Source of the DNA: Oceanotoga teriensis
Lineage (GTDB): Bacteria; Thermotogota; Thermotogae; Petrotogales; Petrotogaceae
Length of the DNA stretch: 48,234 bases
Direction: 5' to 3'
Assembly: GCF_003148465.1 (NCBI RefSeq)
Contig: NZ_QGGI01000018.1
Location: 1-48,234 of the forward strand
The position numbers were made by a program, and so were the translations under genes. The notes beneath the pieces were generated by a model. The model saw only the letters and a list, made by a program, of their open reading frames with translations. It was not told the DNA's origin and did not search any database. Positions 10,186 to 41,186 of the stretch are shown in pieces (position 1 is the first letter of the stretch; each line of letters begins with the position of its first letter).

Positions 10186-10221
10186 CAATTATCTTGTACT
10201 AAATATAGTACAAGATAATTG
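10186..10221. repeat. Perfect 16-bp inverted repeat in the pheST operon leader
   Basis: CAATTATCTTGTACTA (10186-10201) and its exact complement (10206-10221) flank AATA. No T-tract follows in either direction, so it is not a typical terminator. It could be an operator, an RNase processing hairpin or part of an attenuator. No T-box sequence of the kind common upstream of pheST in Firmicutes is visible. Confidence 0.75.
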
Positions 10222-10286
10222 GAAAAACTTAAATTTACATGATACCCCTTTTTGGGAGTTTGCTGATGACGTAGAGGTGAAATAAA

Positions 10287-10907
10287 GTGATAAAAGAGTT
10301 TGAATCAAAAATGTCTGTCATAAAAATCAGTTCACCAAAGATAAATTTTCCTGAAATCTCTTTAGAAGCTGGTGAAAGTATAGGAATATATACAAATTCA
10401 CCATCAAAATATATAAAATATTTTTTTAAAATCATCACAGATCCTTCAAAAAATGCTGAAAAAGTTACAATAAACGAGATTGTAGCAAACACAACTCCAT
10501 GGGTTGGAAGAACTTTTACGCATATTGTGATACCAGAAGTATGGAATGATGATATTTTACAAATATTAAAAAACAAACCAGAAAGACGACATTTAATATT
10601 TATTGGTGCTAAAGATAATCAAATAAAGAAAGAAAAACTTCCTCAAATATCAGAACAAGTACATGAATATCTTAAAAAATGTGCCGTTTTAACTATCACA
10701 GATTCAACAGAATTAATAGAGGCTGTTTGTAAAAAAGTTATAGATACAAATGGCAATGAACTAATATTAACAGAAGAAAAAGTATGTATGGATAAAGATG
10801 GTAATATAGTATCTTTAGATGATGTTGATTGCAATATAAAAAATATAAATATAAAAAAATATAGATTTGTTGGAGAAAAAAACGATTATTTAGAAGATTT
10901 ATTTTAA
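10287..10907 (+). CDS. Uncharacterised cytoplasmic protein, possibly a degenerate ABC-ATPase-like fold
   Basis: A 206-residue protein that I do not recognise, starting at GTG behind AGAGGTG. The stretch SLEAGESIGIYTNSPSKYIKYFFKIIT (about residues 29-55) reads like the start of an ABC ATPase domain in which the Walker A loop has lost its Gly-Lys-Ser. The segments HLIFIGAKD and CAVLTITDSTELIEAVCKKV resemble the Walker B and H-loop regions without the catalytic Asp/Glu and His. If this is right it cannot hydrolyse ATP in the usual way. The resemblance is only by eye. It lies 22 bases before a membrane-protein gene, so the two may form a membrane-associated pair co-expressed with pheST. Confidence 0.6.
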   Translation: MIKEFESKMSVIKISSPKINFPEISLEAGESIGIYTNSPSKYIKYFFKIITDPSKNAEKVTINEIVANTTPWVGRTFTHIVIPEVWNDDILQILKNKPERRHLIFIGAKDNQIKKEKLPQISEQVHEYLKKCAVLTITDSTELIEAVCKKVIDTNGNELILTEEKVCMDKDGNIVSLDDVDCNIKNINIKKYRFVGEKNDYLEDLF

Positions 10908-10929
10908 AATTATATTTAGGGGGTAAAAA

Positions 10930-11760
10930 ATGCCAAAGTATCTTAGAACTATGGCTTATATTTTATTATTGTTTTTTGCCTTTATCATCTTAAATGAGTT
11001 TGCTTATAATAAGAAATTTGATTCCGAACCCTTTTTATTGAAGGGTTATGTTCCTTATGAACTTGAAAAAATAGAAAAAGTTGATGCTTTCCCAAACAAA
11101 GCAAAAGCTTTAATAGAATATAAAGAAAAAACACTTTTTATACACCTTCCAAAAAATGCCGATTATAAAAGTAAAATAATAGATGATATAAATTTATTAG
11201 AATTGAGAATTTCTAAACTCGAAAAAACATTAATTCCTTATTATATTATGATAGATGAAGGTTTAGAAACTCCAGATTTTGTAATATATAAAAATAAATT
11301 TAATATATTCATATATTTATTATCCTTCATGCTTTTTGGAGCTATTTTAGAATTATTTTCAGCAAAAAATTATTTTTTAATTAAATTTAAATACCATAAA
11401 CAAAATTTTAATAAAATAGTATCGATTGTAATATTTTTCTCAATAATGTATTTTATTAATTTTTTTAATATCATATATATAGAAAAATATAATAATTTAA
11501 TACTATTTGCACTTTCTTCAATACTTTTAATAAATTGTTTTGAAAACAAAATTTTTAAATATTCATTATCTATTGTATTGAGTATGATTCCTGTGTTTAT
11601 GAGTTTAAATGATTTAATGATTTTCCTTATAATTTCAATAATAATAAATATAATAATAAACTCAATAAAATTAAAAAAATTAACTTTCATAAAAAGTACT
11701 GGGGAGGTAAATGCAAATGGATTTGAACAAAGATCAGATAATGATGAATCTCAAGAATAA
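10930..11760 (+). CDS. Uncharacterised membrane protein upstream of pheS
   Basis: A 276-residue protein without a recognised family. One N-terminal membrane segment (about 8-25) is followed by a soluble, presumably extracytoplasmic part (about 26-118). Then come about five hydrophobic helices (about 119-245) and a short polar tail. The ATG at 10930 follows AGGGGGTAAAA. Its 3' end overlaps pheS by 44 bases in another frame, and the pheS ribosome-binding site lies inside it. Translation of the two is therefore probably coupled. The function is unknown; its tie to pheST may be only operon packing. Confidence 0.75.
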   Translation: MPKYLRTMAYILLLFFAFIILNEFAYNKKFDSEPFLLKGYVPYELEKIEKVDAFPNKAKALIEYKEKTLFIHLPKNADYKSKIIDDINLLELRISKLEKTLIPYYIMIDEGLETPDFVIYKNKFNIFIYLLSFMLFGAILELFSAKNYFLIKFKYHKQNFNKIVSIVIFFSIMYFINFFNIIYIEKYNNLILFALSSILLINCFENKIFKYSLSIVLSMIPVFMSLNDLMIFLIISIIINIIINSIKLKKLTFIKSTGEVNANGFEQRSDNDESQE

Positions 11761-12733
11761 AATAGATTCTGTAAAAAACCTTGAAGATTTCAAAGTACTC
11801 AAATCAGAGTTCCTTGGAAAAAAAGGTCAAGTAACTCAATTAATGAAAAATATTTCAAAAATTGATAAAGAAAAAAAGAAAGAATATGGTCAAAAAGTTA
11901 ATCAATTAAAATCTGAAATAGAAGATGTTTTAAATTCTTTTATGGAAGAATTAAATGAAAAAAAGAAAAAATCAGAAGAATTAAAAGACTGGGTTGATGT
12001 AACAGTTAGAGGTGCCAAAAATTCTTATGGTAAGGAACATTTAATAAATAAAACAATAAGAGAATCATTTGAAATATTTACAAATCTTGGATTTACAGTG
12101 GTTGAAGGAAATGAAATCGAAGAACCTTGGTTTAATTTTGATGCATTGAATACTCCTGAATGGCATCCTGCAAGAGACATGCAGGACACTTTTTATTTGA
12201 ATCTCGAAAAAACATTATTAAGAACTCATACATCTGGAGTACAAATAAGAACTATGACTAAAATGAATCCACCAATAGCGGTCGTTTCGTCTGGTAGAGT
12301 TTATAGAAAAGATGAAATAGATGCCACACATTCAGCTATGTTTTATCAATTAGAAGGACTTTTTATAGATAAAAAAGTAACTGTTGGAAATCTTAGAAAA
12401 TTTCTCGAAATATACACAAAAAAAATGTTTGGAGATTCTTTAAAGGTATTATTGAGACCAAGTTATTTTCCTTTCGTTGAACCTGGTTTTGAAGTTGATG
12501 TTAGCTGTATAAACTGTGGAGGAAAAGGTTGTAGTGTATGTAAAAATACTGGCTGGATAGAAGTTCTTGGAGCCGGACTTGTTCATCCAAATGTTTTGAA
12601 AAATGTTGGATTCGACCCAGATGAATGGCAAGGATTAGCTTTTGGTGTCGGTGTAGAAAGGATAGCCATGTTAAAATATGGAGTTTCAAATATGAGAGAA
12701 TTTTTCAAAAACGATATAAGATTTGTAGAGTGA
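11717..12733 (+). CDS. pheS: Phenylalanine-tRNA ligase alpha subunit
   Basis: Catalytic subunit of the alpha2-beta2 enzyme that charges tRNA-Phe. The 338 residues comprise an N-terminal coiled coil (about 1-75) and the class II catalytic core. Motif 2 is seen in GRVYRKDEIDATHSAMFYQLEGL and motif 3 in GLAFGVGVERIAMLKYG. The phenylalanine-binding FPFVEPGFEVDV is also present, with a short cysteine-bearing insert (CINCGGKGCSVCKNTGW) between motifs, as in many bacterial PheS proteins. ATG at 11717 is preferred over 11711 because GGGGAGG at 11701-11707 lies too close to the earlier codon. The stop is 13 bases before the pheT start. Confidence 0.97.
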   Translation: MDLNKDQIMMNLKNKIDSVKNLEDFKVLKSEFLGKKGQVTQLMKNISKIDKEKKKEYGQKVNQLKSEIEDVLNSFMEELNEKKKKSEELKDWVDVTVRGAKNSYGKEHLINKTIRESFEIFTNLGFTVVEGNEIEEPWFNFDALNTPEWHPARDMQDTFYLNLEKTLLRTHTSGVQIRTMTKMNPPIAVVSSGRVYRKDEIDATHSAMFYQLEGLFIDKKVTVGNLRKFLEIYTKKMFGDSLKVLLRPSYFPFVEPGFEVDVSCINCGGKGCSVCKNTGWIEVLGAGLVHPNVLKNVGFDPDEWQGLAFGVGVERIAMLKYGVSNMREFFKNDIRFVE

Positions 12734-24815: not shown

Positions 24816-24831
24816 ATTTTTCTACTCTTTT
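24806..24831. terminator. Shared terminator between the thioredoxin and HD-GYP genes
   Basis: AAAAGAGTAGA (24806-24816) pairs with TCTACTCTTTT (24821-24831) around TTTT. It covers the stop codon of the thioredoxin-like gene and the last codons of the opposing HD-GYP gene, with T-runs on both sides. Confidence 0.85.
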
Positions 24832-26843
24832 TTATCATATAAATCTTTGTTTTTTTCTATTATATCAATAAACTTTTCTAAAATTTTTTTATCAAAATGT
24901 TCTGGTTTAGTCCTTTCATCACCATTAATGAGTATATCTATACTTTTTTCATGACTAAATGCTTCTTTATAAGGTCTTTTGGATCTTAAAGCATCGTATA
25001 CATCTACAACAGATACTATTCTGGCTTCAATAGGTATTTCTTCTCCCATCAATCCTATTGGATAACCTGTACCATCCATCTTTTCATGATGAAATAAAGC
25101 AATATTTTTAGCTATTTTTAACATTTCTGAATTACCTATTATATTCGCTCCATAAATTGTATGATTTTTTATAATTTCCCATTCATCAGAGTTCAACTTG
25201 CCATCCTTTCTTAAATAATCTATAGGTATTAATATTTTTCCTATATCATGATAAAATGAATATTCCCTTATCTTTTTACAAAATTCTTCTTCAAAATTCA
25301 TCTCTTTAGAAAGTTCATAACTCAAAAATGATATTCTTCCCATATGTTCAGAAGTTTCATAATCAAATTTTTCTGCTACTATGGTGAGTTTTTTTAGAGA
25401 ATATTTGTATGCTTGTAATGTCTGCTCCTCTCTCCTTTTTAAGTTTAAAAATATTTCTATAAACTTAGAAAAAATTTCAAGATATTCTTTGGAATCTTGT
25501 GAAAATTCTATATCTTCATTAGAATTTAAGGAAATAGAACCTATAAACTTATTATCATCTAAAAGATCTATGAAAATAGTAGATTTAATATCATAAGAGC
25601 CTATTTCTTTGAATATATTTTCAGTTTCTAAAGGTATGTTTTGACTATTATTATATCTTTTTAAATTATTAATTTGTTTAACATGATTGCTAACTTTTAC
25701 AGCTGATTCAATAGGCATCCAAGCTTCAAGTGCTCTATTTGGAAATCCACTGACGGCTTTTATCTTCCAAATATTATTTTTTATGAGGGCTATTGAACCT
25801 TTTTCAGCTTCAGGAACTAATTTAACCATTTCTTTTATAGAATAATCAAGTATGAGATCTATATTTTTTTTATAATCAAAATTATAAAAAATTTTATATA
25901 TATTTTTCAATCTTTCTGAGTATATATTCATTTGTTCTTTCAATTCTTTTTCTCTTATAAAGCTTTCTGTTATCACTTTATTTTTATTAAGTATTTTATT
26001 GTTTGTATTTTTTAATTTTATGAATAAAAGCACTAATATTATAATTATTACAGAAGTTATTATTAAAAATATAAAATAATACACTTTTACTTTTTCTTGT
26101 GTTTCCAAAGCCATCGAATAATCTATTCCAAGCCATTTTCTAAATATTTCATAATATTCTTCACTTTTTAAAATTTTTTTTAACTCTTGATCAAATATTT
26201 TTATTTTTTTATCTTTTCTACTCACAAAAGTAATAGGATATGTATTTAATTCTTCTAAATATCTAAGTTTATATCTATAATCGTTTTCTATAATATATTT
26301 TTCTATAGTCCTTTCATCTTCAATTGCACAAGCTCTAACTTTTTTTAATATTAAATACTCCAAAGCTTTTTCATTACTATTAACTTCAACAATATTTTTA
26401 AATCCTCTTTTTTTTAATTCTTCGTATAAAAAACTGTCTTTTATCACAGAAATTTTTTCATCTTTTAAATTTTCATAATCAATTTCATCATCATTTAAAG
26501 TCATTAAAAATGAAGTAATCGTATGAACAGGAGTATAAAAATCAAACATTTCTTTTCTATATTCATTTGGAACTATAAAACCTAAAACATCATATTTATC
26601 ATCTTCCATAAATTTTTTATAAGCTTCAATCCAATCATAACTTTCTATGTTGAATGTAAGTGATGTTTTATTTTCAATTTCATTTAAAAGATCTATTGCA
26701 AATCCAGTTCTATTTCCTTCAATATAAAAAACATCAGGATAATAATCTGATATTATAACATTATAATTCTCTGAAAATAAAATACTATAAAATATAATAA
26801 TAATGATTATAAATAAAGCTTTATTATATTTAGCCAAATACAT
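24822..26843 (-). CDS. HD-GYP phosphodiesterase with periplasmic solute-binding sensor and GAF domain
   Basis: Membrane-bound signalling protein of about 673 residues. Order: signal or anchor helix (about 8-24), an SBP_bac_3-type ligand-binding domain (about 27-245, GFAIDLLNEIENKTSLTF), a second helix (about 253-277), a GAF-like domain (about 320-465), and an HD-GYP domain (about 480-670). The HD pair is in YHDIGKI and the GYP motif is HHEKMDGTGYPIG. Known HD-GYP proteins degrade cyclic di-GMP. The start is uncertain: ATG at 26843 or TTG two codons later, with GGTGGTG upstream. The sensor domain suggests that an amino-acid-like ligand sets its activity. Confidence 0.92.
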   Translation of the reverse strand: MYLAKYNKALFIIIIIIFYSILFSENYNVIISDYYPDVFYIEGNRTGFAIDLLNEIENKTSLTFNIESYDWIEAYKKFMEDDKYDVLGFIVPNEYRKEMFDFYTPVHTITSFLMTLNDDEIDYENLKDEKISVIKDSFLYEELKKRGFKNIVEVNSNEKALEYLILKKVRACAIEDERTIEKYIIENDYRYKLRYLEELNTYPITFVSRKDKKIKIFDQELKKILKSEEYYEIFRKWLGIDYSMALETQEKVKVYYFIFLIITSVIIIILVLLFIKLKNTNNKILNKNKVITESFIREKELKEQMNIYSERLKNIYKIFYNFDYKKNIDLILDYSIKEMVKLVPEAEKGSIALIKNNIWKIKAVSGFPNRALEAWMPIESAVKVSNHVKQINNLKRYNNSQNIPLETENIFKEIGSYDIKSTIFIDLLDDNKFIGSISLNSNEDIEFSQDSKEYLEIFSKFIEIFLNLKRREEQTLQAYKYSLKKLTIVAEKFDYETSEHMGRISFLSYELSKEMNFEEEFCKKIREYSFYHDIGKILIPIDYLRKDGKLNSDEWEIIKNHTIYGANIIGNSEMLKIAKNIALFHHEKMDGTGYPIGLMGEEIPIEARIVSVVDVYDALRSKRPYKEAFSHEKSIDILINGDERTKPEHFDKKILEKFIDIIEKNKDLYDKKE

Positions 26844-26934
26844 CACCACCAAAAAAATATCATATTATAATATAGTTCTAAAATTAATTGTATCATAATC
26901 TTCATAATCTTCTTATATATATTTACAAATAAAA

Positions 26935-28774: not shown

Positions 28775-28794
28775 AAGCCATTTATTAATGGCTT
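28775..28794 (-). terminator. Hairpin after the SDR gene
   Basis: AGCCATT (28775-28781) pairs with AATGGCT (28787-28793). On the minus strand it is followed by TTTTTC. It overlaps the SDR stop codon and may limit read-through to degV. Confidence 0.65.
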
Positions 28795-29552
28795 CATTGA
28801 AGAAAATCATTTATATGATATACTCCCCCATTTTCAAGTTCATCTTCTATTAAAAGTTCTACTATTTTTGAAGCTACCATTCCTGGTGTTAAAAGTATAC
28901 CATTATTTTTCAAATCTATAAACTTTTTTACATCTATAAAATCTTTTTCTCTAGAATTTCTTATTTTATGTTGCATAGAAGTATCTACAACTCCAGGTGC
29001 AAATGAAATTATTTTTGTATTCGTTCCTATTTTTTCCTGTTCTAAAGCTGAAACTTGAGAAAACATATTCAATCCAGATTTGGAGGAACAATATGCACCC
29101 CAACCATAAACTGGTTTTACAGCTGCTCCAGAAGATATGTTTAAAACAACTTTATTTATATATATTTCTTTTGTTTTTTTCAAAAATACATTTGTCATCA
29201 AAATAGGTGCTATCATATTGACTTTAACATTATCTATAATCTCTTCATTTTCTATCTTTCCCATAGGTTTTATAGGAACTATAACTCCTGCATTGTTTAT
29301 TAAATACAAATTTTCTGTTTTAGATATTTCTATTTTTTCAAATATCTCTTCAAATAACTCTTCTATTCTATAAATATCATTTAAATCAAAATCTATATAT
29401 TCAACACGCACATTTTTTTCATGTGCCAATTCTATTATATCTTTATTAACTGTTCGAGATATACATATTATTTCATTTTCATTTTTCATGAGATTTTTTA
29501 CTATTGATTCGCCTAACCCTCTTGATGCACCAGTTATTATAAAAACGTTCAT
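28794..29552 (-). CDS. Short-chain dehydrogenase/reductase (YueD/benzil-reductase-like)
   Basis: A 252-residue NADP(H)-dependent SDR. Cofactor motif TGASRGLG at residues 7-14, NNAG at 86-89, and the catalytic Ser140/141, Tyr154 and Lys158 in the Y-x-x-x-K arrangement (YCSSK). SRT after the second strand suggests NADPH preference. The spacing and the YGWGAYCSSKSG segment resemble Bacillus YueD, a carbonyl (benzil) reductase. The ATG follows AAGGAGG. The physiological substrate is unknown. Confidence 0.9.
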   Translation of the reverse strand: MNVFIITGASRGLGESIVKNLMKNENEIICISRTVNKDIIELAHEKNVRVEYIDFDLNDIYRIEELFEEIFEKIEISKTENLYLINNAGVIVPIKPMGKIENEEIIDNVKVNMIAPILMTNVFLKKTKEIYINKVVLNISSGAAVKPVYGWGAYCSSKSGLNMFSQVSALEQEKIGTNTKIISFAPGVVDTSMQHKIRNSREKDFIDVKKFIDLKNNGILLTPGMVASKIVELLIEDELENGGVYHINDFLQ

Positions 29553-30508: not shown

Positions 30509-32545
30509 ATGAAGAAAATACTTTTAATGGCAGTCATTTTAGTAATTTCTGTTATATCTTTTTCTATAACCACTAAGGGTGAGTTATTAAATACTGGAAA
30601 TTATTTTTTACAAAATGAGAAGTTTACAGTTGTAATAGGTGGAATAGACTCTGAACAACCTGGTTTCATAAAAAACTTCAGAGCCAATGCATCAGAAAAA
30701 GATCTATTCAATAATCATAATTACTTTATCTCAAAAAATGATCTTGAAATAAATAAGATCGAAAATGTAAAAGAAGGTATAAAAGTAATATCAAAAAATT
30801 CAACTTATTATACAGAAACTGTATACTACATGACAGATAGCGATTTATGGATTAAAACAAAAATAAAAAATATATCTAATAAGTCACAACTTTTAAAATT
30901 TACGGAAACTATAGATTATCAAAAAGAGATGCCATACTATACATCTTCGAGAATAAACGATGACTTAATTTTTATGATGCAAAATGGTGTTTATGCAATT
31001 GGATATTTTCCAGAAACAACTGGAGATATTAAAAAACTTGTTATAAACAATAATAGATTATTTTCATCTCCAGCATATAAAAAAATAAATCCTATGGAAG
31101 AATTTACTTTCACAAGATTTATAAGAGTAGAAAAAAATATTGCTGATATTCAAAAATTTTATTATGAAAAAAATAAAATTACTTATGACACTTATAAGGG
31201 CAAGATAAGTTTAAACACAGGTAAAAAAGCTGGACTCTTGCCTGTTTATTTGAGAGAAAACGAAATAGGGACTTTAATTTCTTTTGGATTCACTGATGAA
31301 AATGGGATTATAAATTTTTATACCGATAAAAACGAATATTTTACACAAGTTGAAATCGGAGAATTAAAATCTGATAAAGTAGCTTTAAAAAAATTTTTTG
31401 AAATAGATTTAAATTTATCAGAAAATAGATTTTTGTATCAACCTTATTTAACTAATCAAACAAAAGATGGAATAACTATAAACTTTAAAACTGAATTTCC
31501 TGCAAAATCACAATTAAATATCTATTCAAATAATAAAAAAATAAAAACATATGAAATAAATACGCCTAATCTAATAAATCATGTAGAAGTTAAAGATTTA
31601 GAGCCAAATCAAGAATATAACTATATAGTGAATATAAAAGATACTTTTACAAAAAATGAAATTTTTTCAGCTATAAAAACTTTTAAAACTAAACCATCAA
31701 TTATCTCAAACTATACTTTTATAGTATATGGAGACACACAAATATTTGATAAAAGACATGAATATGTTGTCAATAGCATAGTAAATTCTGGAATAAATCC
31801 AGAGTTTATAGTAAAGCCAGGGGATAATGTTGAAAAAGGTCATGATGAAAAGATGTGGCAAGGTTTTTTTAAAGCAGCCAATCCTTTAATATCAAAGATA
31901 CCTTATTATACAGCTTTGGGAAATCATGAATATAACGATCTTTTATATTATAAAGCTTTTTCACATCCCGAAGGTGGCGGTGATTATAAAAATCAATGGT
32001 ATTCATTTGATTATGGTAACTCACATTTTATAATATTGGATTCAAATGTAGTAGAAACAAATCCTAAATTTAAAGAGCAATTATCTTGGCTTGAAAATGA
32101 TTTAAAAACAAATAAAAATAAAGATTTTATATTTGTTGCATATCATCATCCTTTCTGGACTACCGGAACAGAATATGGACCTATGGAAGAAAATTTACCC
32201 GAAGGCCATTATAATAGAAAATATTGGGAGCCATTGTTCATAAAATATGGTGTTGATGCTGTATTCAATGGTCATTTACATGCTTATGAAAGACATTATA
32301 AAGATAATATAATGTATATAACCTCTGGAGGCGGTGGAGCAAAATTAAATCAAAAGCATAATGCAAAACCTCTTGATTGGCATGTAATGCATGAATTGAA
32401 GAAACTAAATTTTGTAGAAGTTAATGTATATCAAGATAGAATAGATTTTACAGTATATGCTGTTGGTAAAGTTGAAGATCCTTTATATCCTTATGAAATA
32501 ACTCCTATAAATGAAATCATAGATAAATTTTCTATAAAAAAATAA
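30509..32545 (+). CDS. Secreted purple-acid-phosphatase-like metallophosphoesterase
   Basis: A 678-residue exported protein. Signal peptide at residues 1-20. A beta-rich N-terminal region of about 300 residues has no recognised family. A fibronectin-III-like domain (about 300-395) ends in YNYIVNIKD and is followed by a calcineurin-type phosphoesterase (about 400-660). Metal-ligand motifs in order are YGDTQ (about 405), PGDNVEKG, GNHEY (about 470), HHPFW (about 545) and GHLHAYER (about 587). The GHxHxYER ending and the preceding fibronectin-like domain are typical of the purple acid phosphatase group. The metal-bridging Tyr of true purple enzymes is not in place. The ATG follows GGGGGG. It ends in a terminator just before the defence-like island. 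Confidence 0.9.
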   Translation: MKKILLMAVILVISVISFSITTKGELLNTGNYFLQNEKFTVVIGGIDSEQPGFIKNFRANASEKDLFNNHNYFISKNDLEINKIENVKEGIKVISKNSTYYTETVYYMTDSDLWIKTKIKNISNKSQLLKFTETIDYQKEMPYYTSSRINDDLIFMMQNGVYAIGYFPETTGDIKKLVINNNRLFSSPAYKKINPMEEFTFTRFIRVEKNIADIQKFYYEKNKITYDTYKGKISLNTGKKAGLLPVYLRENEIGTLISFGFTDENGIINFYTDKNEYFTQVEIGELKSDKVALKKFFEIDLNLSENRFLYQPYLTNQTKDGITINFKTEFPAKSQLNIYSNNKKIKTYEINTPNLINHVEVKDLEPNQEYNYIVNIKDTFTKNEIFSAIKTFKTKPSIISNYTFIVYGDTQIFDKRHEYVVNSIVNSGINPEFIVKPGDNVEKGHDEKMWQGFFKAANPLISKIPYYTALGNHEYNDLLYYKAFSHPEGGGDYKNQWYSFDYGNSHFIILDSNVVETNPKFKEQLSWLENDLKTNKNKDFIFVAYHHPFWTTGTEYGPMEENLPEGHYNRKYWEPLFIKYGVDAVFNGHLHAYERHYKDNIMYITSGGGGAKLNQKHNAKPLDWHVMHELKKLNFVEVNVYQDRIDFTVYAVGKVEDPLYPYEITPINEIIDKFSIKK

Positions 32546-32573
32546 ATCCGGCAGTATAATATGCCGGATTTTT
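32544..32573 (+). terminator. Terminator separating the phosphoesterase from the methyltransferase
   Basis: AAATCCGGCA (32544-32553) pairs with TGCCGGATTT (32562-32571). The loop contains TATAAT, so it may double as the -10 region of the methyltransferase gene, though no -35 box is evident. Confidence 0.8.
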
Positions 32574-32589
32574 AGTATCGGAGGAAATG

Positions 32590-35500
32590 ATGAGTTTAAA
32601 AATAAATAAACAAATAAACCAAATAAAAAATATATTAAAAAATGACATAGAACAAACTCTTTCGATATATGATGAGAAAATAAAAAGAAGAGAAAATTAT
32701 ATCAATGAATATACATTTACTCACACAAATATTATACTCTGTATAAAAATACTACAAGAAAAATTTATACTTGCAGAAGAATACTTAAAAAAAGATTCAA
32801 ATTATTATAATTTGATAAGAAAAGAAGATGATCAAAAATTTGAAGATATAGTCTTACAAGCTTATAAAGATGCCATAAAAGAATGTAATTTTATTTTTAA
32901 AGATATAGATAGTATTAATGAATACATTGAAATTTTACCCAGTGGATATGCCATAATAAAAATTTTAGATATACTTGAAACAATAACTTGTTGGAATGAA
33001 GATGATTTCCTTGGTTGGGCCTATCAATTTTATAATGATGAAATACGTGAAAATACTCTAAACAAAAATGATTTAAATTATATATCTTTAAATTCTCAAT
33101 TTTATACACCAAAGTGGATAATAAACTATTTAATAGAAAATACTTTATTAAAATATATACAAGAAAATAAAAATATGAGTTTAGAAAATATTAAAATTTA
33201 CGATCCAACATGTGGAAGTGGTCATTTTCTAATAAGAACTTATGAATATCTGAAAGAAATATACTTAGAAAACGGCTATTCTTTAAATGAAACTATAAAA
33301 AATATAGTAGAAAAAAACCTCTATGGTTTTGATATTGATGAAAGAGCGGTACAAATAGCTAATTTAATTATAAAAATAAAAACTTTTGAAGACGGATATA
33401 CAGAAGATATAACTCCAAACATACTCTCTCCAAATAAAATAAAGAATAAAAAACTAAAACTATTGGGTTCTTTATACACGGGAAAAAGTCTTAGTATATT
33501 GAATCAAAAATATGATATTATACTTTCGAATCCACCTTATACGGATTCATCAGAATATTCAGATGAATTAAAATATTTAATAAAAAATAACTATGCTAAA
33601 TTCAAGAAAAATTTATATAGTTGCTATATAGCAAAAAACATCGAAATGGTAAAAAACAATGGATATATTGGAATGATAACTCCTCAAACATTTATGTTTA
33701 TAAGTTCTTACAAAGATACGAGAGATCTTATAATAAAAAATACTCATATAGATAAATTTGTACATTTTGGTTTAGGTGGCGTATTTGATTATGCCCTTGT
33801 CGATACTGCCATGTATATATTAAAAAAATCAAAAAATGATAATTCACAATCAAAATTTATAAAGTTAACAGATGTTCAAAATAAAAAAGATGCCTTAAAA
33901 AAAGAAGATTTATATAGTTATATGATAAGCCAAAGTGATTTTAAACAAATACCAACATTATCTTTTGTATACTGGATAAGTAACAAATTCAGAAATATTT
34001 TTAAATTCAAACCTCTAAAAAATATATGTGATATAAGACAAGGAGTAGCAACTGGAAACAATAAAAAATTCTTGAGATATAATTGGGAAATTGCAAATTT
34101 AAATGATAAATGGGTAAATTACGTAAAAGGTGGCCCTCATAAAAAATGGTATGGAAATCTTTGGTGGCTAATATCTTATGATGAGAACAGTTATAGGGAA
34201 TTAAAATTAAATGGTAATCATCTTCCAAATGAAAAATACTATTTCAAAGAAGGTATTACATATTCAATGACAACATCTAAAGGCTCTACATTTAGATATC
34301 TTCCGAAAGGCAACATATTTGATTGTAAAGGAAGTAGTTTGTTTTTTAAAAATGAAGAAGATATATTCGTATTCTTAGCTTTGTTAAATTCAAAATTATC
34401 CTCTTATTTGTACAAATTCATAGCAGGAAGTGTTGATTTGGAAGTTGGAGACTTAAAAAATCTACCAATAAGTCCCCAATTATTAAAAAATACTGAAATC
34501 AGAGAAAAATTAATTTTATTATCAAAAATAAATATATTAATAATGAAACAAAATACAGAACATATTCCAATAGAATCTCATTATGATGATAAATATGATT
34601 TAAACCTTAAAAATAATGTCTATGAAGAACTTTCAACCTTTATAAATAAAAAAAATATTCTCGATTCTTATATGGCTTTAAGTGAATCTTTAATAGATGA
34701 AATAATATTCGAATCGTATAATCTTGATGAAAAAGATTTACAAAACATATATTCATCAGAAGGGTTCTCATACATTAAATATCCTGTAATAGATAATTTT
34801 AAACTACCAAAATTTAAAAATTATATAAATAAAAAATATTTGAATGAATTTAAAATACATGAAGATGATTTAGAAAAATTAGAAGATTTGATCCATAAAA
34901 ATATAAAATATGAAAATAAAAATTTTTCAAAAGACATTATAATTAAAAATTATGAAAAAAAATTTAGATCTGATTATATAAATTCTATAAAATATAGTGC
35001 AATAAAAAGTAAAACAAATCCGATAAATGTGTACAATATCATTTGCAAAAATCAAAAAAAATTATCAAAAAAATCTTTTGAAATAAAAAATTTATTATCT
35101 CTTGAAATAAATAAATTAATAATAAAATATTTAAAAAGTTTAAATTTTGGTTTTTGTAGTATTGAAAAAAACACAAAAGATATCGACTCCATTGAAAAAT
35201 ATATAATATCAAAAACATCTTTAAATAATGATTTATTCATAGATATTTTTGAAAAAAACTTGGTGAATTACTTAAAAACAGATTTTATGGTTTTTCATAA
35301 AAAATTATACAAAAAAAGACCTTTAATAATTCCCATAGGAAATAAAAATCTAGATATAACAATATTTTTATATTATTTTTCTTTTGAAAAAAATACTCTT
35401 TCTATGATAAATAAAATATATATAAATGAATCTATTGAAAAATTAAAAAATAAAGTTTCTATTACAAAAAAAGAAGAAGAATTGATATCTCAATATAATG

Positions 35501-35604
35501 AATTTAAAAAGAATATTGAAAAGATAAAAATAGATAATATAAATTTCGATGATGGAATAGAAAAAAATATTCAAAAAATAAATACAATAACTATTAATAT
35601 ATAA
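32590..35604 (+). CDS. PglX/Eco57I-type adenine-specific DNA methyltransferase
   Basis: Predicted N6-adenine methyltransferase of 1004 residues. A helical N-terminal part (about 1-165) precedes the catalytic core: QFYTPKWIINYLI, AdoMet motif I DPTCGSGHFL (about 205-214), GFDIDERAV, and catalytic motif IV NPPY (about 314-317) in DIILSNPPYTD. A target-recognition region follows (about 480-640, DIRQGVATGNNKKFL through LLNSKLSSYLYKFIAGSVDLEVGDLKNLPI), as in PglX of BREX and Eco57I-family enzymes. The last 350 residues are Lys/Ile/Asn-rich and unrecognised; no PD-(D/E)xK nuclease motif is apparent. ATG at 32590 fits GGAGG better than 32587. It sits 16 bases before the helicase gene, so the two form an operon. 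Shorter than typical PglX (about 1200). Confidence 0.9.
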   Translation: MSLKINKQINQIKNILKNDIEQTLSIYDEKIKRRENYINEYTFTHTNIILCIKILQEKFILAEEYLKKDSNYYNLIRKEDDQKFEDIVLQAYKDAIKECNFIFKDIDSINEYIEILPSGYAIIKILDILETITCWNEDDFLGWAYQFYNDEIRENTLNKNDLNYISLNSQFYTPKWIINYLIENTLLKYIQENKNMSLENIKIYDPTCGSGHFLIRTYEYLKEIYLENGYSLNETIKNIVEKNLYGFDIDERAVQIANLIIKIKTFEDGYTEDITPNILSPNKIKNKKLKLLGSLYTGKSLSILNQKYDIILSNPPYTDSSEYSDELKYLIKNNYAKFKKNLYSCYIAKNIEMVKNNGYIGMITPQTFMFISSYKDTRDLIIKNTHIDKFVHFGLGGVFDYALVDTAMYILKKSKNDNSQSKFIKLTDVQNKKDALKKEDLYSYMISQSDFKQIPTLSFVYWISNKFRNIFKFKPLKNICDIRQGVATGNNKKFLRYNWEIANLNDKWVNYVKGGPHKKWYGNLWWLISYDENSYRELKLNGNHLPNEKYYFKEGITYSMTTSKGSTFRYLPKGNIFDCKGSSLFFKNEEDIFVFLALLNSKLSSYLYKFIAGSVDLEVGDLKNLPISPQLLKNTEIREKLILLSKINILIMKQNTEHIPIESHYDDKYDLNLKNNVYEELSTFINKKNILDSYMALSESLIDEIIFESYNLDEKDLQNIYSSEGFSYIKYPVIDNFKLPKFKNYINKKYLNEFKIHEDDLEKLEDLIHKNIKYENKNFSKDIIIKNYEKKFRSDYINSIKYSAIKSKTNPINVYNIICKNQKKLSKKSFEIKNLLSLEINKLIIKYLKSLNFGFCSIEKNTKDIDSIEKYIISKTSLNNDLFIDIFEKNLVNYLKTDFMVFHKKLYKKRPLIIPIGNKNLDITIFLYYFSFEKNTLSMINKIYINESIEKLKNKVSITKKEEELISQYNEFKKNIEKIKIDNINFDDGIEKNIQKINTITINI

Positions 35605-35620
35605 AATGGGAGGTAAAACT

Positions 35621-37996
35621 TTGAAATTTAATAATAATATAGAAAATATGAATTTAAAAGAAAAGTTGATAAAATACTTTAATTTTGAAGATTTTAGAAG
35701 TTTTGAAATATACTCTGAAAATTTGAAAAAAGAAGAAATATCTCAGGAATATATAATTAAATTTGTTTTAAATGAACTTTTATATTCAGAAGAAACTCCA
35801 AGAGATATGATGTTCGTAGCTTCAACTGGTGGTGGTAAATCTTTAATATATCAAATGCTTGGAAGAATTCTTCATGATATGAATTTAATGACTATTATAA
35901 TAGACCCTTTAAAAACACTTATGAATGATCAGATAAAAACATTAAAATCAAATAAAGAATTTGGGGATATTGTGGAAAAAATAAATTCAGATACAACTTA
36001 TGAAGAAAGAAAGATAATATATGAAAATATTCAATCTGGAAAAACTTCTATAGTTTATGTATCACCAGAATTTTTAGCTAATAATCCAGTAAATGAAATA
36101 TTTAAAAACAGACAAATAGGACTATTCGTAATAGATGAAGCTCATGTCGTAAATTCTTGGGGAAATACATTTAGAGCAGATTATGGTTATTTAGGAGATT
36201 ATCTAGAAGATTTACAAGAACTTTCAAATCATAGATATGTTAAACTTGCTTTAACTGCAACTGCTATATATAAAGGCGAATTGGATACTGTAAATGAAAT
36301 TAAAGAATATTTAAATTTAAGAAATCCAGAAATTATAATAACAAATTATAGAAGAGATAATATAGATTTTAACATAATAAAAATAGATGATATAAAAGGA
36401 TCTTTCACTGAGTATCTTTATGAAAAAATAATACTAAGAATAAAAGATAATATAAAAAATAAAATAAAAACAATAGTTTATTGTCCATTCAAAAGTCATG
36501 TATATCAATTTAAAAGAAAGATTCAATATGAGCTACAAAAAGTTGGATATTTAACAGGCGATACTTCATCCAATGAAAGGAAGAATATTCAAGAAAGATT
36601 CAAATCTGGAAATCTTACAGTTGTAATAGCAACAAAAGCTTTTGGAATGGGTGTAGATGTACCTGATGTTAGAGAAGTAATACATTTCAAACTACCAAAC
36701 TCATTAATAGATTATATTCAAGAAATAGGTAGAAGTGGTAGAGATGGTGATAAATCAAAAGCAACTGTTTTTTACAATGAAAAATCAATAAAAGATTCTA
36801 ATAAACTTGAAAAATCAGCAATTCCAGCAAAATGGCAATTAGAACATACATATAAAGCTATAAAAAAAAGAGCAGAAGAAACAGAAAACAAACAATTCAG
36901 AATTTCTTCTGGAGATATATCTCATCTTTTTAATGGTGAATCAAGTTCATCATCCATACAAAAAAGTCGTTCAGCCCTTTTTATTGTAGAAAGGCAATTA
37001 GAAAGAAATTTCAACAAAAAAATCTTAAAAAAAATATTTGAAGGAAATCAAAAATTATATTTTGGAATTTTAAAATATGATGCAGATATTGTAGAAAAAA
37101 AAGTAAAAGAAATAAAGCATATACCAAATGAAACTTTTAAAAATGATTTTAACTATATGGGAAATGAAAAGAAAATTTTACAAAATTTTTACGAACTTGA
37201 TGTAAAGGAATTCCTAAAAAATAATTATCCGGATATATCTTATCAAAAGTTCATTTATAACTTTTTTTGGGGAAATAATGAAGATTTTTTTGGTAAAAAT
37301 GTTTCACCTAAAATATATTATAAACTAAAAATTTTTGATTATGAAAAATCAAAAGAAACCTTAGAAAAAGTTATAGATTTTTTTAATGCTTTCTTATTAG
37401 AAGATAGAGAAGATAATCTATTAAGTGGTCAAGTTAAACAACAAACAGTAGAAAATCATCTAAAAAAATATATAAGAGAAAATTATGATAAATTAGAATG
37501 GATAAATGAATCAAAAACCGAAATAACTTCAAAAATAACCAGAATATTCTCTTCATTTTTTATAGATAATAAAGAAAATGAAATGCCTTTTGCATACTTT
37601 AATAAAAATAATTTTCTCAATTTAAGATATAATAAAAATATAGCTCCTCATATAAGAGAGAATATATTAAAAATATTTGAAAATTCTTATTCAGAAAATA
37701 CACTTGAAAGAGATATGATAATAGATATTCAAAATGTAAATTCATCTCCATCTGTAATAATTGCCAGTATACTTGAAATGTTACATCAGGCTGAAATACA
37801 AACCGAAGGCGAACAAAATGGTATAATAATATATGAAAAAATGGATGAACTCCCAGAAGAACTTAAAATTACCAAAGCTAAAGAATTAAAAGAAAACATT
37901 GAAAAACAAAAAAATATAATGACAGAATTCTTTGAAACAGAAATGAATAATGAACAAAGATGGGATTATATTGAAAAATACTTTTTAAAAATATAA
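35621..37996 (+). CDS. RecQ-like superfamily 2 helicase
   Basis: A 791-residue predicted ATP-dependent DNA helicase. Walker A STGGGKS (68-74), DEAH box VIDEAH (about 170-175), motif III LTATA (about 211-215), motif V ATKAFGMGVDVPDV (about 337-350) and motif VI QEIGRSGRDG (367-376) match RecQ. It lacks the cysteine zinc-binding module and HRDC domain of housekeeping RecQ. About 400 C-terminal residues are unrecognised. The start is TTG at 35621 behind GGGAGG at 35608-35613. Its position 16 bases after the methyltransferase gene argues for a defence role rather than general repair. A terminator follows at 37995-38020. Confidence 0.88.
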   Translation: MKFNNNIENMNLKEKLIKYFNFEDFRSFEIYSENLKKEEISQEYIIKFVLNELLYSEETPRDMMFVASTGGGKSLIYQMLGRILHDMNLMTIIIDPLKTLMNDQIKTLKSNKEFGDIVEKINSDTTYEERKIIYENIQSGKTSIVYVSPEFLANNPVNEIFKNRQIGLFVIDEAHVVNSWGNTFRADYGYLGDYLEDLQELSNHRYVKLALTATAIYKGELDTVNEIKEYLNLRNPEIIITNYRRDNIDFNIIKIDDIKGSFTEYLYEKIILRIKDNIKNKIKTIVYCPFKSHVYQFKRKIQYELQKVGYLTGDTSSNERKNIQERFKSGNLTVVIATKAFGMGVDVPDVREVIHFKLPNSLIDYIQEIGRSGRDGDKSKATVFYNEKSIKDSNKLEKSAIPAKWQLEHTYKAIKKRAEETENKQFRISSGDISHLFNGESSSSSIQKSRSALFIVERQLERNFNKKILKKIFEGNQKLYFGILKYDADIVEKKVKEIKHIPNETFKNDFNYMGNEKKILQNFYELDVKEFLKNNYPDISYQKFIYNFFWGNNEDFFGKNVSPKIYYKLKIFDYEKSKETLEKVIDFFNAFLLEDREDNLLSGQVKQQTVENHLKKYIRENYDKLEWINESKTEITSKITRIFSSFFIDNKENEMPFAYFNKNNFLNLRYNKNIAPHIRENILKIFENSYSENTLERDMIIDIQNVNSSPSVIIASILEMLHQAEIQTEGEQNGIIIYEKMDELPEELKITKAKELKENIEKQKNIMTEFFETEMNNEQRWDYIEKYFLKI

Positions 37997-38020
37997 AACC
38001 CGGAATTTTCCGGGTTTTTT
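37995..38020 (+). terminator. Terminator between the helicase and the BrxC-like ATPase
   Basis: AAACCCGGAA (37996-38005) pairs with TTCCGGGTTT (38008-38017) and is followed by T. It would split the three-gene module into two transcripts unless it is leaky. Confidence 0.85.
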
Positions 38021-38063
38021 CCATATAAATATTAAAAACATATCAAAATATGCCCTGAAATAG

Positions 38064-38069
38064 TATAAT
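38064..38069 (+). promoter_or_regulatory. Possible -10 of the BrxC-like gene
   Basis: TATAAT 33 bases before the ATG, after the helicase terminator. The hexamer 17 bases upstream (TATCAA) is a poor -35. It would allow the ATPase to be expressed separately from the methyltransferase and helicase. Confidence 0.4.
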
Positions 38070-38101
38070 ATATCTGAAAAAATAAAATTAGGAGAGATAC
38101 G

Positions 38102-40684
38102 ATGCAAAAAATAAAGGACATATTAACTTATAATTTTAATAATAAAATTGAAACTATAATAAAACTTTCAGAAGAATATGATACAGAAAATTTAAAATCT
38201 TATATCTTTACTGAAAATATTGAAAATTCAATGATAAAAATTTTTGAAGGATTGAATTCAAATATTGTGGGAAATTGGATATATGGAAATTATGGTTCTG
38301 GAAAAACTCATTTTGCAAAAATAATTTCTTATATATTAGAATTTGGTTTAAATGTAGAATACAAAAATAATATAAAATCTAAAAAGCTAAAAAGTCTAAT
38401 AGATAAATCAAATAAAAACTTTATAGTTGTAAAAATAGATCTTTCTTTATACGCAAATTCAAAATTAAATTTAAGTCAAATAATAATAAATGAATTACTT
38501 CATACTTTAAATATAAAAAATAAATTTGATGATGTTTCCGATAATACAAGAAATTTAGATACTTTTATAAACTCTTTAATAAAAGACAATAAACTCTTAT
38601 TAATAATAGATGAAATAGAACAGTTTATAAAATCATCTAATTTAAATTCTTTAGAAATACAAGGAATCATACATCAATTTGAAATATCAAAAGATAAATA
38701 TATTATATTTATATCTCAATCAAACCCTTATAAAATAGAAAAAATTAAAAGTATTGCAGATAGAATTAAAAATATAATACATATAAAAGATGAAGATATT
38801 GAACAAGTAATAATAAAAAGACTTCTCAAGAAAAATATATCTATGAAAGGATTATATGAAAAATACAATTCAAATATAATAATTAATTCAGATTTAGAAA
38901 TCTTAAAAGATGAAATAAACTTAAATTTTTTTGAACAAATTCATCCTTTAAAACCCGAAATTTTAAAAATACTTCCAAATATAATTCAAAATATTTCTAA
39001 TAGAAGTCTCATCAATATAATTTATGAAACTTTAAAAAGATTTGAAAATGATATTTTAACGAGGCAAATATGTATATACGATTTTTTTGAAAGTATAAAA
39101 GATACAGATAAATATAAAAAAATTTTGAATAGAGATGATGAATTAGAAAAAAATATATTGAAAACTCTAATTCTATACAATAATAAATTAAATATAGATA
39201 CCCTAACTAAATTAACTATAAATAATATAACAAAAAAACTAATAGATCATAAAATTGATATAATGAAAAAACTAAAAAAAATTGAATCTGAAGAATTAAT
39301 TATATTAAAAGAAAAAGAAATTATTTTATTTGATGACTATGAACTAAAAATAAATAAAAAAATAAATAAAATAAATGATGAATATTTATTAATGAAAAAA
39401 AAGGAGAAAACTCTTTTAAAAAGTTATGAAAAAATATTTTCAAATTTATATTATACTTCAAAAAATGGTAAAAAAAAGAAATTAATCATAAACAATTCTC
39501 CAACAGCTTTAAACAAAAAAAAGAATATAATGATAACTATTTTAAATGATAAAAAACAATTAAATTATAAAGAAATTCTAGAAACAGATGATGAAATCTT
39601 TATAATTCTAAAAAAAGAAAAAAATATTGAAAAAGATTTGAACAAACTCACCAAAATTTTGATTTTTGAAGAAAAATCAAATATTGAAAAAGAAATTAAT
39701 TATATATCAAAAATAAAAGAATACTATGAAAATAAAATCGAAAAAAATCTTAAAAAACTTTTTGAATCATCTGAAATATATTATTATAAAGAAAAAAGTT
39801 TTTTTATAAAAAAAGATTTCGAACAAGAAATTCTAAATTTTATAAATAATTTAGTATATAAAACAGCCTATTCAAAAAGTCTTGATACTCAAAAAAAGAA
39901 AAAAGATATAATATATATAAAAAATCATGAAAATCAAACAATAATAAAGAATTATCCTGAATATTTTAAAAATGAATGTATAAATACAAATACCATAGAA
40001 TATAAAACTTTGAGATTATTTAATGAAAATACCTTATTTGATTTATTTGAAACATTAAAAAACAAACCTTATGATTGGACAATAAATGATATAATTTTCT
40101 ATATAATAATATTAATAAAATTCAAAAAAATTCAAAAAATTGATATAGAAAATTCTTTAAACAATACTAAAAAATTAAAAAATACAAAAATTAAATTTAT
40201 AAAAGATGAATTATCAGAACAGGACTTAAATGATGCAAAAAGAAAACTAATACATTTAAAATTAATGGATAAAAATGCAAAAAAGGAAGAAATCGAAGAC
40301 TGTATAAAAAAATTATATAATAATATAAATTTAGACCATTCAGAAAACTATATAAAAGATTTTATATACAATTTTTCTACAATAAAACAAAAATTAAGTA
40401 ATGAATTTAGAAGTCCTTTTATAAAATCATTGTATGAAGAAAAATATGGTTTGATTAAAGATAATAATATAAAAAGATTAATAGAAGAAATTCCCTTAAA
40501 AAGTGATATAGAACTTTGGGAAGAATATAAAAAAATTTTTAATGCTAAATTCGAAGAATTGAAAATATACAATGAGAACCTCAAAAATTTTAAATATAAT
40601 CCTGAAAAATATAATATATATTTTTTAAATTATTCTTATACTGGATTATTAACAGCTTTAGAGCTATTAAAAAATAAAAGATAG
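38102..40684 (+). CDS. BrxC-like P-loop ATPase
   Basis: An 860-residue predicted AAA-type ATPase. Walker A GNYGSGKTH at 62-70 is preceded by YIFTENIENSMIKIFEGL and followed by FAKIISYILEFGLNV. Walker B is LLLIIDE (165-171), continuing IEQFIKSSNLNSLEIQGIIHQFE, then a sensor-like FISQSNP. This order and the wording around each motif resemble BrxC/PglY of BREX systems (VDEVGQF and SGFFGSGKSH there). It is shorter than BrxC (about 1200), and the C-terminal half is Lys/Asn/Ile-rich and unrecognised. The ATG follows AGGAGA. It is the third gene of the island; its stop lies inside a strong terminator. In BREX the ATPase is needed for both methylation and exclusion. Confidence 0.8.
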   Translation: MQKIKDILTYNFNNKIETIIKLSEEYDTENLKSYIFTENIENSMIKIFEGLNSNIVGNWIYGNYGSGKTHFAKIISYILEFGLNVEYKNNIKSKKLKSLIDKSNKNFIVVKIDLSLYANSKLNLSQIIINELLHTLNIKNKFDDVSDNTRNLDTFINSLIKDNKLLLIIDEIEQFIKSSNLNSLEIQGIIHQFEISKDKYIIFISQSNPYKIEKIKSIADRIKNIIHIKDEDIEQVIIKRLLKKNISMKGLYEKYNSNIIINSDLEILKDEINLNFFEQIHPLKPEILKILPNIIQNISNRSLINIIYETLKRFENDILTRQICIYDFFESIKDTDKYKKILNRDDELEKNILKTLILYNNKLNIDTLTKLTINNITKKLIDHKIDIMKKLKKIESEELIILKEKEIILFDDYELKINKKINKINDEYLLMKKKEKTLLKSYEKIFSNLYYTSKNGKKKKLIINNSPTALNKKKNIMITILNDKKQLNYKEILETDDEIFIILKKEKNIEKDLNKLTKILIFEEKSNIEKEINYISKIKEYYENKIEKNLKKLFESSEIYYYKEKSFFIKKDFEQEILNFINNLVYKTAYSKSLDTQKKKKDIIYIKNHENQTIIKNYPEYFKNECINTNTIEYKTLRLFNENTLFDLFETLKNKPYDWTINDIIFYIIILIKFKKIQKIDIENSLNNTKKLKNTKIKFIKDELSEQDLNDAKRKLIHLKLMDKNAKKEEIEDCIKKLYNNINLDHSENYIKDFIYNFSTIKQKLSNEFRSPFIKSLYEEKYGLIKDNNIKRLIEEIPLKSDIELWEEYKKIFNAKFEELKIYNENLKNFKYNPEKYNIYFLNYSYTGLLTALELLKNKR

Positions 40685-40715
40685 TATTTCATTTTCTGAT
40701 GAAATACTATCTTTT
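40676..40715 (+). terminator. Terminator overlapping the BrxC-like stop codon
   Basis: Perfect 17-base arms (40676-40692, 40699-40715; core GATAGTATTTCAT) with loop TTTCTG. The stop codon and the codons before it are in the first arm. Followed by ATTAT rather than a long T-run, but the second arm itself ends TTTT. Confidence 0.8.
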
Positions 40716-40773
40716 ATTATGGAGTTAACTTCAAATGTTTCATAATATTTACATTTTTAAATTATTTTCAAGC

Positions 40774-40911: not shown

Positions 40912-40940
40912 TTGACTTTATTTAAAAATATTGATATAAT
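40912..40940 (+). promoter_or_regulatory. Strong promoter of the micro-ORF pair
   Basis: TTGACT (40912-40917), 17-base spacer ending TGA, then TATAAT (40935-40940). This is among the best promoter matches in the window and lies 35 bases before the first ATG. Confidence 0.85.
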
Positions 40941-40975
40941 ACTTATGAAAGTTAAAAACAGAGGGAGGAATTGAT

Positions 40976-41062
40976 ATGAAAGAAAAAAGAAAAAACATCA
41001 GAGTATTGGATAGACTTGATATTAATAGAGAAATTGTTTGGGAATTCATAAGACACATCTAA
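40976..41062 (+). CDS. Micro-protein 1 (28 aa), unknown
   Basis: Predicted 28-residue basic peptide starting MKEKRKNIRVLDRLDINREI and ending WEFIRHI. It has an ideal ribosome-binding site (GAGGGAGG, 40961-40968) and a near-consensus promoter. It is 16 bases ahead of a second micro-ORF with the same kind of site. Both peptides have a basic start, an R-(L/I)-D core and an amphipathic, Arg-containing end (FIRHI versus MIRKI), so they may be related. No family is recognised. It could be a regulatory or leader peptide, or a small partner of the neighbouring module. Confidence 0.55.
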   Translation: MKEKRKNIRVLDRLDINREIVWEFIRHI

Positions 41063-41078
41063 GAGGGAGGTGTATCTC

Positions 41079-41186
41079 ATGTTAAAAAAAACCAGAAAAA
41101 GAATTGAATCATATGCAGAAGCTTTTGATAGAATAGATAAAGAAGATATGAGACATATATTTGAAGAGATGATAAGAAAAATATAA
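41079..41186 (+). CDS. Micro-protein 2 (35 aa), unknown
   Basis: Predicted 35-residue basic peptide (MLKKTRKRIESYAEAFDRID, ending MRHIFEEMIRKI), probably one amphipathic helix. Its site GAGGGAGG (41063-41070) begins straight after the first micro-ORF stop, and a terminator follows four bases after its own stop. The pair thus forms a self-contained short transcription unit between the BrxC-like gene and the antiporter gene. Function unknown. Confidence 0.55.
   Translation: MLKKTRKRIESYAEAFDRIDKEDMRHIFEEMIRKI

What the first reader, a model, noticed from the sequence alone, without database searches (positions are those of the whole stretch)
32590..40684. Compact BREX-like three-gene module without PglZ: PglX-type methyltransferase, RecQ-like helicase, BrxC-like ATPase
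Seen: motif I DPTCGSGHFL and NPPY with a PglX-like recognition region, a RecQ-type helicase 16 bases downstream, and a P-loop ATPase whose Walker A and B surroundings read like BrxC. Known: BREX systems combine PglX and BrxC/PglY with PglZ, and most with BrxA/B or BrxL; some types carry a helicase. PglZ is the hallmark. Here the flanks are a secreted phosphoesterase and a cation antiporter, so PglZ, BrxA, BrxB and BrxL are missing from the locus. Inference: this is a minimal, possibly undescribed BREX relative in which a RecQ-like helicase takes the effector or processing role. All three proteins carry long unrecognised C-terminal parts.
Basis: partly seen in the sequence, partly recalled or inferred. 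Interest (0 to 1): 0.92.

Follow-up and report, generated by a model that had tools for sequence, protein, structure and literature searches.

The report
Stand-alone core methyltransferase derived from BREX
The three genes are not a conserved mini-defence system: the first is a DNA-marking enzyme descended from the BREX phage-defence methyltransferase that a whole bacterial family (Petrotogaceae) keeps, mostly alone and with an apparently fixed DNA target, and the other two are later lineage-specific neighbours.

Summary
The three ORFs are real and PglZ and BrxB are absent from the whole genome, but the triplet is not a conserved module: no other of 103 Thermotogota genomes searched has it. 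The MTase is a family-core gene. Orthologs (35-53% identity) occur in all 21 genomes of the family (8 genera): intact in 19, interrupted in 2. Neighbourhoods differ by genus; 17 of the 21 genomes have no detectable PglZ or BrxC-like ATPase. Its history roughly follows RecA (Mantel r 0.81). Its target-recognition domain (TRD) is its most conserved part (mean identity 0.71 against 0.53 for the catalytic domain, higher in 171/171 pairs; dN/dS 0.01-0.08). Real BREX PglX proteins show the reverse (TRD 0.39, catalytic 0.52). Most likely this is a domesticated, PglX-derived solitary adenine methyltransferase with one fixed target, working without BrxB/PglZ. The BrxC-like ATPase is confined to one three-genus clade and adjacent to the MTase in two genera. 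The RecQ/DpdF-type helicase (PADLOC 'C3a193') sits here only in this genome; its relatives accompany other defence genes. Methylation, motif and the roles of ATPase and helicase are inferred, not shown. New variant of a known kind.

The parts
32587..35604 (+). PglX-derived adenine-specific DNA methyltransferase (1005 aa), family-core gene
33202..33222 (+). MTase motif I DPTCGSG (SAM binding), residues 206-212
   Evidence: mostly invariant in 19 orthologs
33529..33540 (+). MTase motif IV NPPY (N6-adenine type), residues 315-318
   Evidence: invariant in 19 orthologs
33946..34479 (+). Target-recognition domain, residues 454-631 (equivalent to E. coli BrxX 651-837): most conserved domain of the family
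   Evidence: domain limits from PMC11842806
35606..37996 (+). RecQ/DpdF-like helicase of PADLOC family C3a193, lacking the ~210-residue N-terminal part of its relatives; translation may start at TTG 35621
37995..38018 (.). Hairpin terminator-like site between helicase and ATPase
38102..40684 (+). BrxC-related AAA+ ATPase (860 aa), shorter than BrxC; relatives only in G001 and G004 within the family apart from true BREX BrxC
32544..32571 (.). Hairpin terminator-like site upstream of the MTase (end of the phosphoesterase gene)
40673..40718 (.). Hairpin terminator-like site at the end of the ATPase gene
30509..32545 (+). Secreted metallophosphoesterase; same neighbour upstream of the MTase in G004 (43% identity), marks the shared locus
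28794..29552 (-). Short-chain dehydrogenase; same neighbour in G004 (51% identity)

Best explanation
The MTase is a solitary, chromosomal, adenine-specific DNA methyltransferase descended from BREX-1 PglX. It was fixed in the ancestor of this family (inferred Petrotogaceae) and kept since with one unchanged DNA target. It probably binds one short non-palindromic site through its TRD, flips out an adenine and makes N6-methyladenine on its own, without BrxB, PglZ and in most genera without any BrxC-like ATPase; BREX PglX has been shown not to do this alone. The mark then serves as a housekeeping or regulatory signal (as for CcrM, Dam, CamA) rather than as the self-mark of a BREX locus. In the clade of the window genome a stripped BrxC-like ATPase is kept, in two genera just downstream of the MTase, and may assist or regulate it. 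In the window genome alone, a defence-type RecQ/DpdF-like helicase sits between the two. Shown by sequence: presence across the family, phylogeny roughly following RecA, inverted domain conservation, intact catalytic motifs, absence of partners. Inferred: methylation activity, autonomy, regulatory role. Speculative: roles of ATPase and helicase.
For: Orthologs in all 21 family genomes, 8 genera; 19 intact. Genus-level groups agree between MTase and RecA trees; Mantel r 0.81, p<=0.0005. Different neighbours in different genera, no conserved nuclease neighbour. PglZ only in G004 and G020, both with real BREX loci; BrxC-like ATPase only in G000, G001, G004, G020. TRD identity 0.71 > catalytic 0.53 in 171/171 pairs; N- and C-terminal domains 0.28 and 0.34; in 13 BREX PglX the pattern is opposite (0.53/0.52/0.39/0.53 for N/catalytic/TRD/C). 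TRD dN/dS 0.011-0.077 in 8 pairs, lowest of the four domains in every pair. Positions equivalent to BrxX K681, D684, R751, Q784, N823 and V599, V766, L822 are invariant, or 18 of 19 identical, in 19 orthologs. Catalytic motifs intact; no conserved nuclease residues in N- or C-terminal parts. The N-terminal part and the stretch before NPPY are shorter than in BREX PglX. BREX PglX alone does not methylate and needs BrxB, BrxC and PglZ (PMC11842806, PMC13326643).
Against: No methylome is at hand, so activity and motif are unproven. A partner nuclease elsewhere in each genome was not excluded. Two of 21 copies are interrupted (G008 at an A9 run, G020 in several places; possibly assembly errors). 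RecA alone resolves deep branches poorly, and some long MTase branches group unsurely. Residue equivalence in the TRD rests on sequence alignment, weakest at R751. Other phyla could not be searched systematically, so restriction to this family is not shown.
Confidence: 0.72

Rival explanations
1. A PglZ-free, three-gene defence system specific to this lineage: the MTase marks self DNA, the BrxC-like ATPase assembles on unmarked DNA, and the RecQ/DpdF-like helicase unwinds or blocks it, resembling the three-gene BREX-Related (BR) systems.
For: Three adjacent same-strand genes whose kinds (AAA+ ATPase, adenine MTase, SF2 helicase) match BR systems (PMC12839542); helicase belongs to families found in defence loci.
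Against: Triplet absent from all other Thermotogota genomes searched; terminator-like site between helicase and ATPase; no nuclease domain; ATPase matches neither DUF499 nor DUF6079 in Pfam; MTase evolves as a core gene with fixed target.
Confidence: 0.15
2. Remnant of a decayed BREX locus: MTase and ATPase are leftovers of an ancestral BREX island whose other genes were lost, with the helicase as former accessory cargo, none under present selection as a system.
For: Clear PglX and BrxC ancestry; ATPases differ in length (656, 860, 943 aa) and are only 33% identical; extra genes including recQ are known to insert after pglX in Acinetobacter BREX loci (PMC10117892).
Against: MTase shows strong purifying selection and family-wide retention, which a decaying remnant would not. 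ATPase follows the MTase, whereas BrxC precedes PglX in the annotated BREX-1 loci seen here. The ATPase alone could still be a remnant.
Confidence: 0.1
3. A stand-alone restriction-modification enzyme (Type IIG/IIL-like), with nuclease and MTase in one chain, conserved for defence.
For: PADLOC Type IIG model PDLC03600 matches at 387.9 bits; BrxX catalytic and recognition domains are homologous to Type IIL enzymes (PMC11842806).
Against: No conserved nuclease residues: the N-terminal 165 residues have only four invariant positions (K14, W136, W144, Y146), the C-terminal part three (Y711, K909, P912). Strict conservation of one specificity across 8 genera is unlike restriction enzymes.
Confidence: 0.03

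Closest known systems
PglX/BrxX of Type 1 BREX (E. coli BrxX, PDB 9ewz; PglX, PDB 8c45)
   Same: Same domain order and catalytic motifs; best PDB matches (E 1e-64 to 1e-66) and best NCBIfam model.
   Different: No BrxB or PglZ in the genome; shorter N-terminal part and pre-NPPY stretch; TRD conserved instead of variable, N- and C-terminal domains variable instead of conserved.
Core orphan adenine methyltransferases (CcrM, Dam, CamA)
   Same: Solitary, chromosomal, retained across a lineage, fixed specificity inferred, no conserved nuclease neighbour.
   Different: Derived from the large BREX PglX family (about 1000 aa); spans a whole family with differing neighbourhoods; function unknown.
BREX-Related (BR) systems, Rakesh and Krishnan 2026 (PMC12839542)
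   Same: AAA+ ATPase of BrxC/DUF499 kind, adenine MTase and helicase.
   Different: BR helicases are Swi2/Snf2 type, ATPases DUF499, mostly with a nuclease or PglZ; here RecQ-like helicase, no nuclease, MTase of BREX-1 type.
PADLOC C3a193 ('poss. alt. Cas3') / DpdF / RecQ helicases
   Same: Full-length alignment of the helicase with C3a193.
   Different: Window copy lacks about 210 N-terminal residues; relatives in same-order genomes are next to a CARF_CYTH_HD-type protein, in G019 in a DISARM-like locus.
recQ/dprA/duf262 accessory genes inserted after pglX in Acinetobacter BREX (PMC10117892)
   Same: A RecQ-type helicase directly downstream of a PglX-type gene.
   Different: Those loci keep PglZ, BrxA, BrxB, BrxL; the helicases share only the RecQ core (29%).

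Membership tests
BREX (any type) | PglZ present | tested here: not met
   PF08665 absent from the whole genome; same search finds it in G004 and G020
BREX (any type) | BrxB present | tested here: not met
   PF08747 absent from the whole genome
BREX (any type) | PglX-type methyltransferase | tested here: met
   NF033452 420.9 bits, just under the curated 500; PDB BrxX/PglX best
BREX (any type) | BrxC/PglY ATPase of about 1200 residues | tested here: inconclusive
   Homologous AAA+ part but 860 aa and 102.6 bits against cut-off 400
BREX (any type) | Single linked operon recurring in genomes | tested here: not met
BREX-Related (BR) systems | DUF499 ATPase | tested here: not met
   No DUF499 or DUF6079 match in Pfam at E<=1
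BREX-Related (BR) systems | Swi2/Snf2 helicase, usually with nuclease or PglZ nearby | tested here: not met
   RecQ/DpdF-like helicase, no nuclease domain found
Core orphan DNA methyltransferase | Conserved across the lineage | tested here: met
   21/21 genomes, 8 genera; intact in 19
Core orphan DNA methyltransferase | No cognate restriction partner | tested here: inconclusive
   None conserved next to it; elsewhere in the genomes not tested
Core orphan DNA methyltransferase | Fixed target specificity | tested here: met
   TRD most conserved domain, base-reading positions conserved; sequence inference only
Core orphan DNA methyltransferase | Methylates DNA alone in vivo | not testable with these tools
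   Needs a methylome
Type IIG/IIL restriction-modification | Nuclease motif in the same chain | tested here: not met
   No conserved nuclease residues outside the MTase core
C3a193 / RecQ-type helicase | Helicase motifs and full-length profile match | tested here: met
   N-terminal ~210 residues missing

The most novel reading that the evidence does not exclude
In this genus the family-wide fixed methylation mark laid by the PglX-derived core enzyme has been adopted as the self-signal of a small PglZ-free defence layer: the BrxC-like ATPase and the RecQ/DpdF-like helicase sense and block DNA lacking the core mark. Defence would here be built on a pre-existing housekeeping epigenetic mark rather than brought in with its own methyltransferase.
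Probability: 0.12. Interest if true: 0.8.

Novelty: new variant of a known kind. Interest (0 to 1): 0.5.

Why it matters
In the BREX systems studied so far PglX methylates only together with BrxB, BrxC and PglZ, and why is open. A PglX-family enzyme that a whole bacterial family keeps without those partners, with the partner-facing ends variable and the recognition domain frozen, would be a natural experiment in how PglX becomes autonomous. It also gives a candidate core epigenetic mark for a family in which no such mark was found in the papers searched. It warns that a PglX hit alone should not be counted as BREX.

Tried and rejected
Single-sequence AlphaFold models of ATPase and helicase were useless (pLDDT 34 and 33), so no fold search was run. 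IMG/VR scan with the ATPase found no relative; scan with the helicase alignment found 13 loci, none with the MTase or ATPase nearby; scan with the MTase alignment gave only distant hits (31% for the best full-length one), and the three loci I opened (L159, L161, L162) show BREX-like gene order. Plasmid and phage searches gave mostly annotated BREX PglX on plasmids, all under 60% identity. One genome-contig scan with the helicase gave two RecQ-type hits, neither with the triplet. Other PglX-like hits in the phylum (G099, G051, G033, G032) are BREX, cut off by contig ends or unrelated MTases. Searching other phyla by the genome search was not possible. The idea that the window holds a replication-initiation-like gene matching the Petrotoga-type MTase neighbours was dropped: 8516-9205 is a CRP-type regulator.
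Full report
What is there. The three ORFs are as described: MTase 32587-35604 (1005 aa), helicase 35606-37996 (796 aa, likely start TTG 35621), ATPase 38102-40684 (860 aa). Terminator-like hairpins lie at 32544-32571, 37995-38018 and 40673-40718 (4 such sites in the region against 0.7 expected), so MTase+helicase look like one unit and the ATPase another. This is a consensus match, not a transcript map.

Host. The assembly has 2,793,031 bases in 45 contigs. A published table lists Oceanotoga teriensis DSM 24906 with 45 contigs, 2,792,290 bp, 25.9% GC (PMC11326445), so the window is probably from that strain (Petrotogaceae, Thermotogota). Genus names for other handles are inferences from genome sizes. 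That paper reports a software-predicted BREX in the related strain UFV_LIMV02 without naming genes. It may be this locus; I cannot tell.

Families. The MTase is nearest BREX-1 PglX: NCBIfam 420.9 bits with cut-off 500, PADLOC PglX 402.6, PDB PglX 8c45 and BrxX 9ewz. The ATPase is a distant BrxC relative (102.6 bits, cut-off 400); a profile of it and its two relatives finds solved BrxC at E 2e-31 to 4e-29, mostly over the AAA+ part. The helicase is RecQ/DpdF-like and aligns end to end with PADLOC C3a193, but lacks about 210 N-terminal residues present in relatives. PglZ and BrxB are absent from the genome.

The triplet does not recur. Among 103 Thermotogota genomes the MTase has close orthologs in all 21 genomes of the same family, 8 genera, intact in 19 by ORF inspection. 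G008 is split at an A9 run and G020 is broken in several places. G020's BREX genes are broken as well, so sequencing error is possible. The neighbours differ by genus: a potassium-channel TrkA protein, aldose epimerase, replication-loader-like ATPase and others. The ATPase has relatives in the family only in G001 (about 300 kb from the MTase) and G004 (about 12 bases after the MTase), apart from true BREX BrxC in G004 and G020. G000, G001 and G004 group together in the RecA tree (94/84). G004 and the window share dehydrogenase, phosphoesterase, MTase and ATPase, but G004 has no helicase there. So helicase insertion in the window lineage, or its loss in G004, separates the two. PglZ occurs in 2 of 21 genomes, both with other BREX loci. 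Seventeen of 21 therefore have neither PglZ nor a detectable BrxC-like ATPase.

Vertical history. MTase and RecA distances correlate (Mantel r 0.81, p<=0.0005; Spearman 0.39), and genus groups agree. The weaker rank correlation and open deep branches leave room for some transfer.

Fixed target. The domain limits and base-contacting residues come from the E. coli BrxX-DNA structure (PMC11842806), mapped by alignment. In the family the TRD is the most conserved domain: 0.71 mean pairwise identity against 0.53 for the catalytic domain, 0.28 and 0.34 for the ends, TRD above catalytic in 171/171 pairs. Thirteen BREX PglX proteins, seven of them from Acinetobacter plasmids, show the opposite: 0.39 TRD, 0.52 catalytic, 0.53 and 0.53 ends, and within Acinetobacter TRD 0.29-0.46 beside ends of 0.86-1.00. 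At matched catalytic identity (0.35-0.65) the TRD is 0.67 in the family and 0.40 in BREX. The BREX set was chosen for similarity to the window, and pairs are not independent. TRD dN/dS is 0.011-0.077 in eight pairs, lowest of the domains each time; several pairs have saturated dS. Eight contact positions are invariant or 18/19.

Reading. BREX PglX needs BrxB, BrxC and PglZ to methylate (PMC13326643, PMC11842806). An enzyme with intact catalytic motifs, strong selection and a frozen recognition domain, kept in genomes without these partners, most likely works alone. Its partner-facing ends are the variable parts and are shortened, which fits release from the BREX complex. No conserved nuclease residues were found. 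A housekeeping or regulatory role is inference by analogy with Dam, CcrM and CamA (own knowledge; CamA also PMC13395437).

ATPase and helicase. The ATPase may be a regulator or a relic. The helicase's relatives stand next to CARF proteins in G022, G029/G027 and G030, and in a DISARM-like locus in G019. RecQ genes also occur as cargo just after pglX in Acinetobacter BREX (PMC10117892), though of a different RecQ group (29%). I therefore read the helicase as accessory cargo of defence origin.

Novelty. No paper found describes a solitary PglX in Petrotogaceae; the library is open-access only. BR systems (PMC12839542) are the nearest three-gene arrangement but differ in helicase, ATPase and nuclease. 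I rate it a new variant of a known kind: a core orphan methyltransferase of unusual, BREX origin.

Noticed in passing
L057 (G019:C26), 1-12254: Helicase homolog (1009 aa, 41% to the window's) follows a DrmMI/Type IIG-like MTase (1231 aa), a DruE-like SNF2 protein (1672 aa) and a DrmD/DrmA-like fragment: a mixed DISARM/Druantia-like locus cut by the contig end.
   Followed up: partly
L053, L055, L056 (G029, G030, G022): C3a193 helicases are each next to a ~1050-1076 aa CARF_CYTH_HD/CARF_HEPN-like protein, suggesting a conserved helicase-CARF pair beside CRISPR-type genes.
   Followed up: partly
L092-L096 (g3 genomes), MTase and its two upstream genes: Frame-keeping repeat-peptide insertions (SLTAxKEDSLTA, TASRQIRKTAS types) in the MTase and both upstream genes; origin unknown.
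   Followed up: no
L093 6752-7997, L094 6291-7632: In g3 genomes the MTase follows, with overlap, a winged-helix protein and an IstB/DnaC-like AAA+ ATPase, hinting at a replication link.
   Followed up: partly
L086 (G008:C40) about 2696-2715: MTase split into two ORFs at an A9 run: phase variation, pseudogene or assembly error.
   Followed up: no
window 40912-41186: Strong promoter-like site (11 of 12, extended -10) before two similar tiny ORFs (28 aa at 40976, 35 aa at 41079) with good ribosome sites and a terminator-like hairpin.
   Followed up: no
L242 (NZ_CP090068.1 105000-128000): Acinetobacter plasmid BREX with recQ, dprA and DUF262 genes inserted between pglX and pglZ.
   Followed up: partly
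window 24822-26852: HD-domain protein with a solute-binding domain (SBP_bac_3 + HD), possibly a cyclic-di-GMP phosphodiesterase receptor.
   Followed up: no
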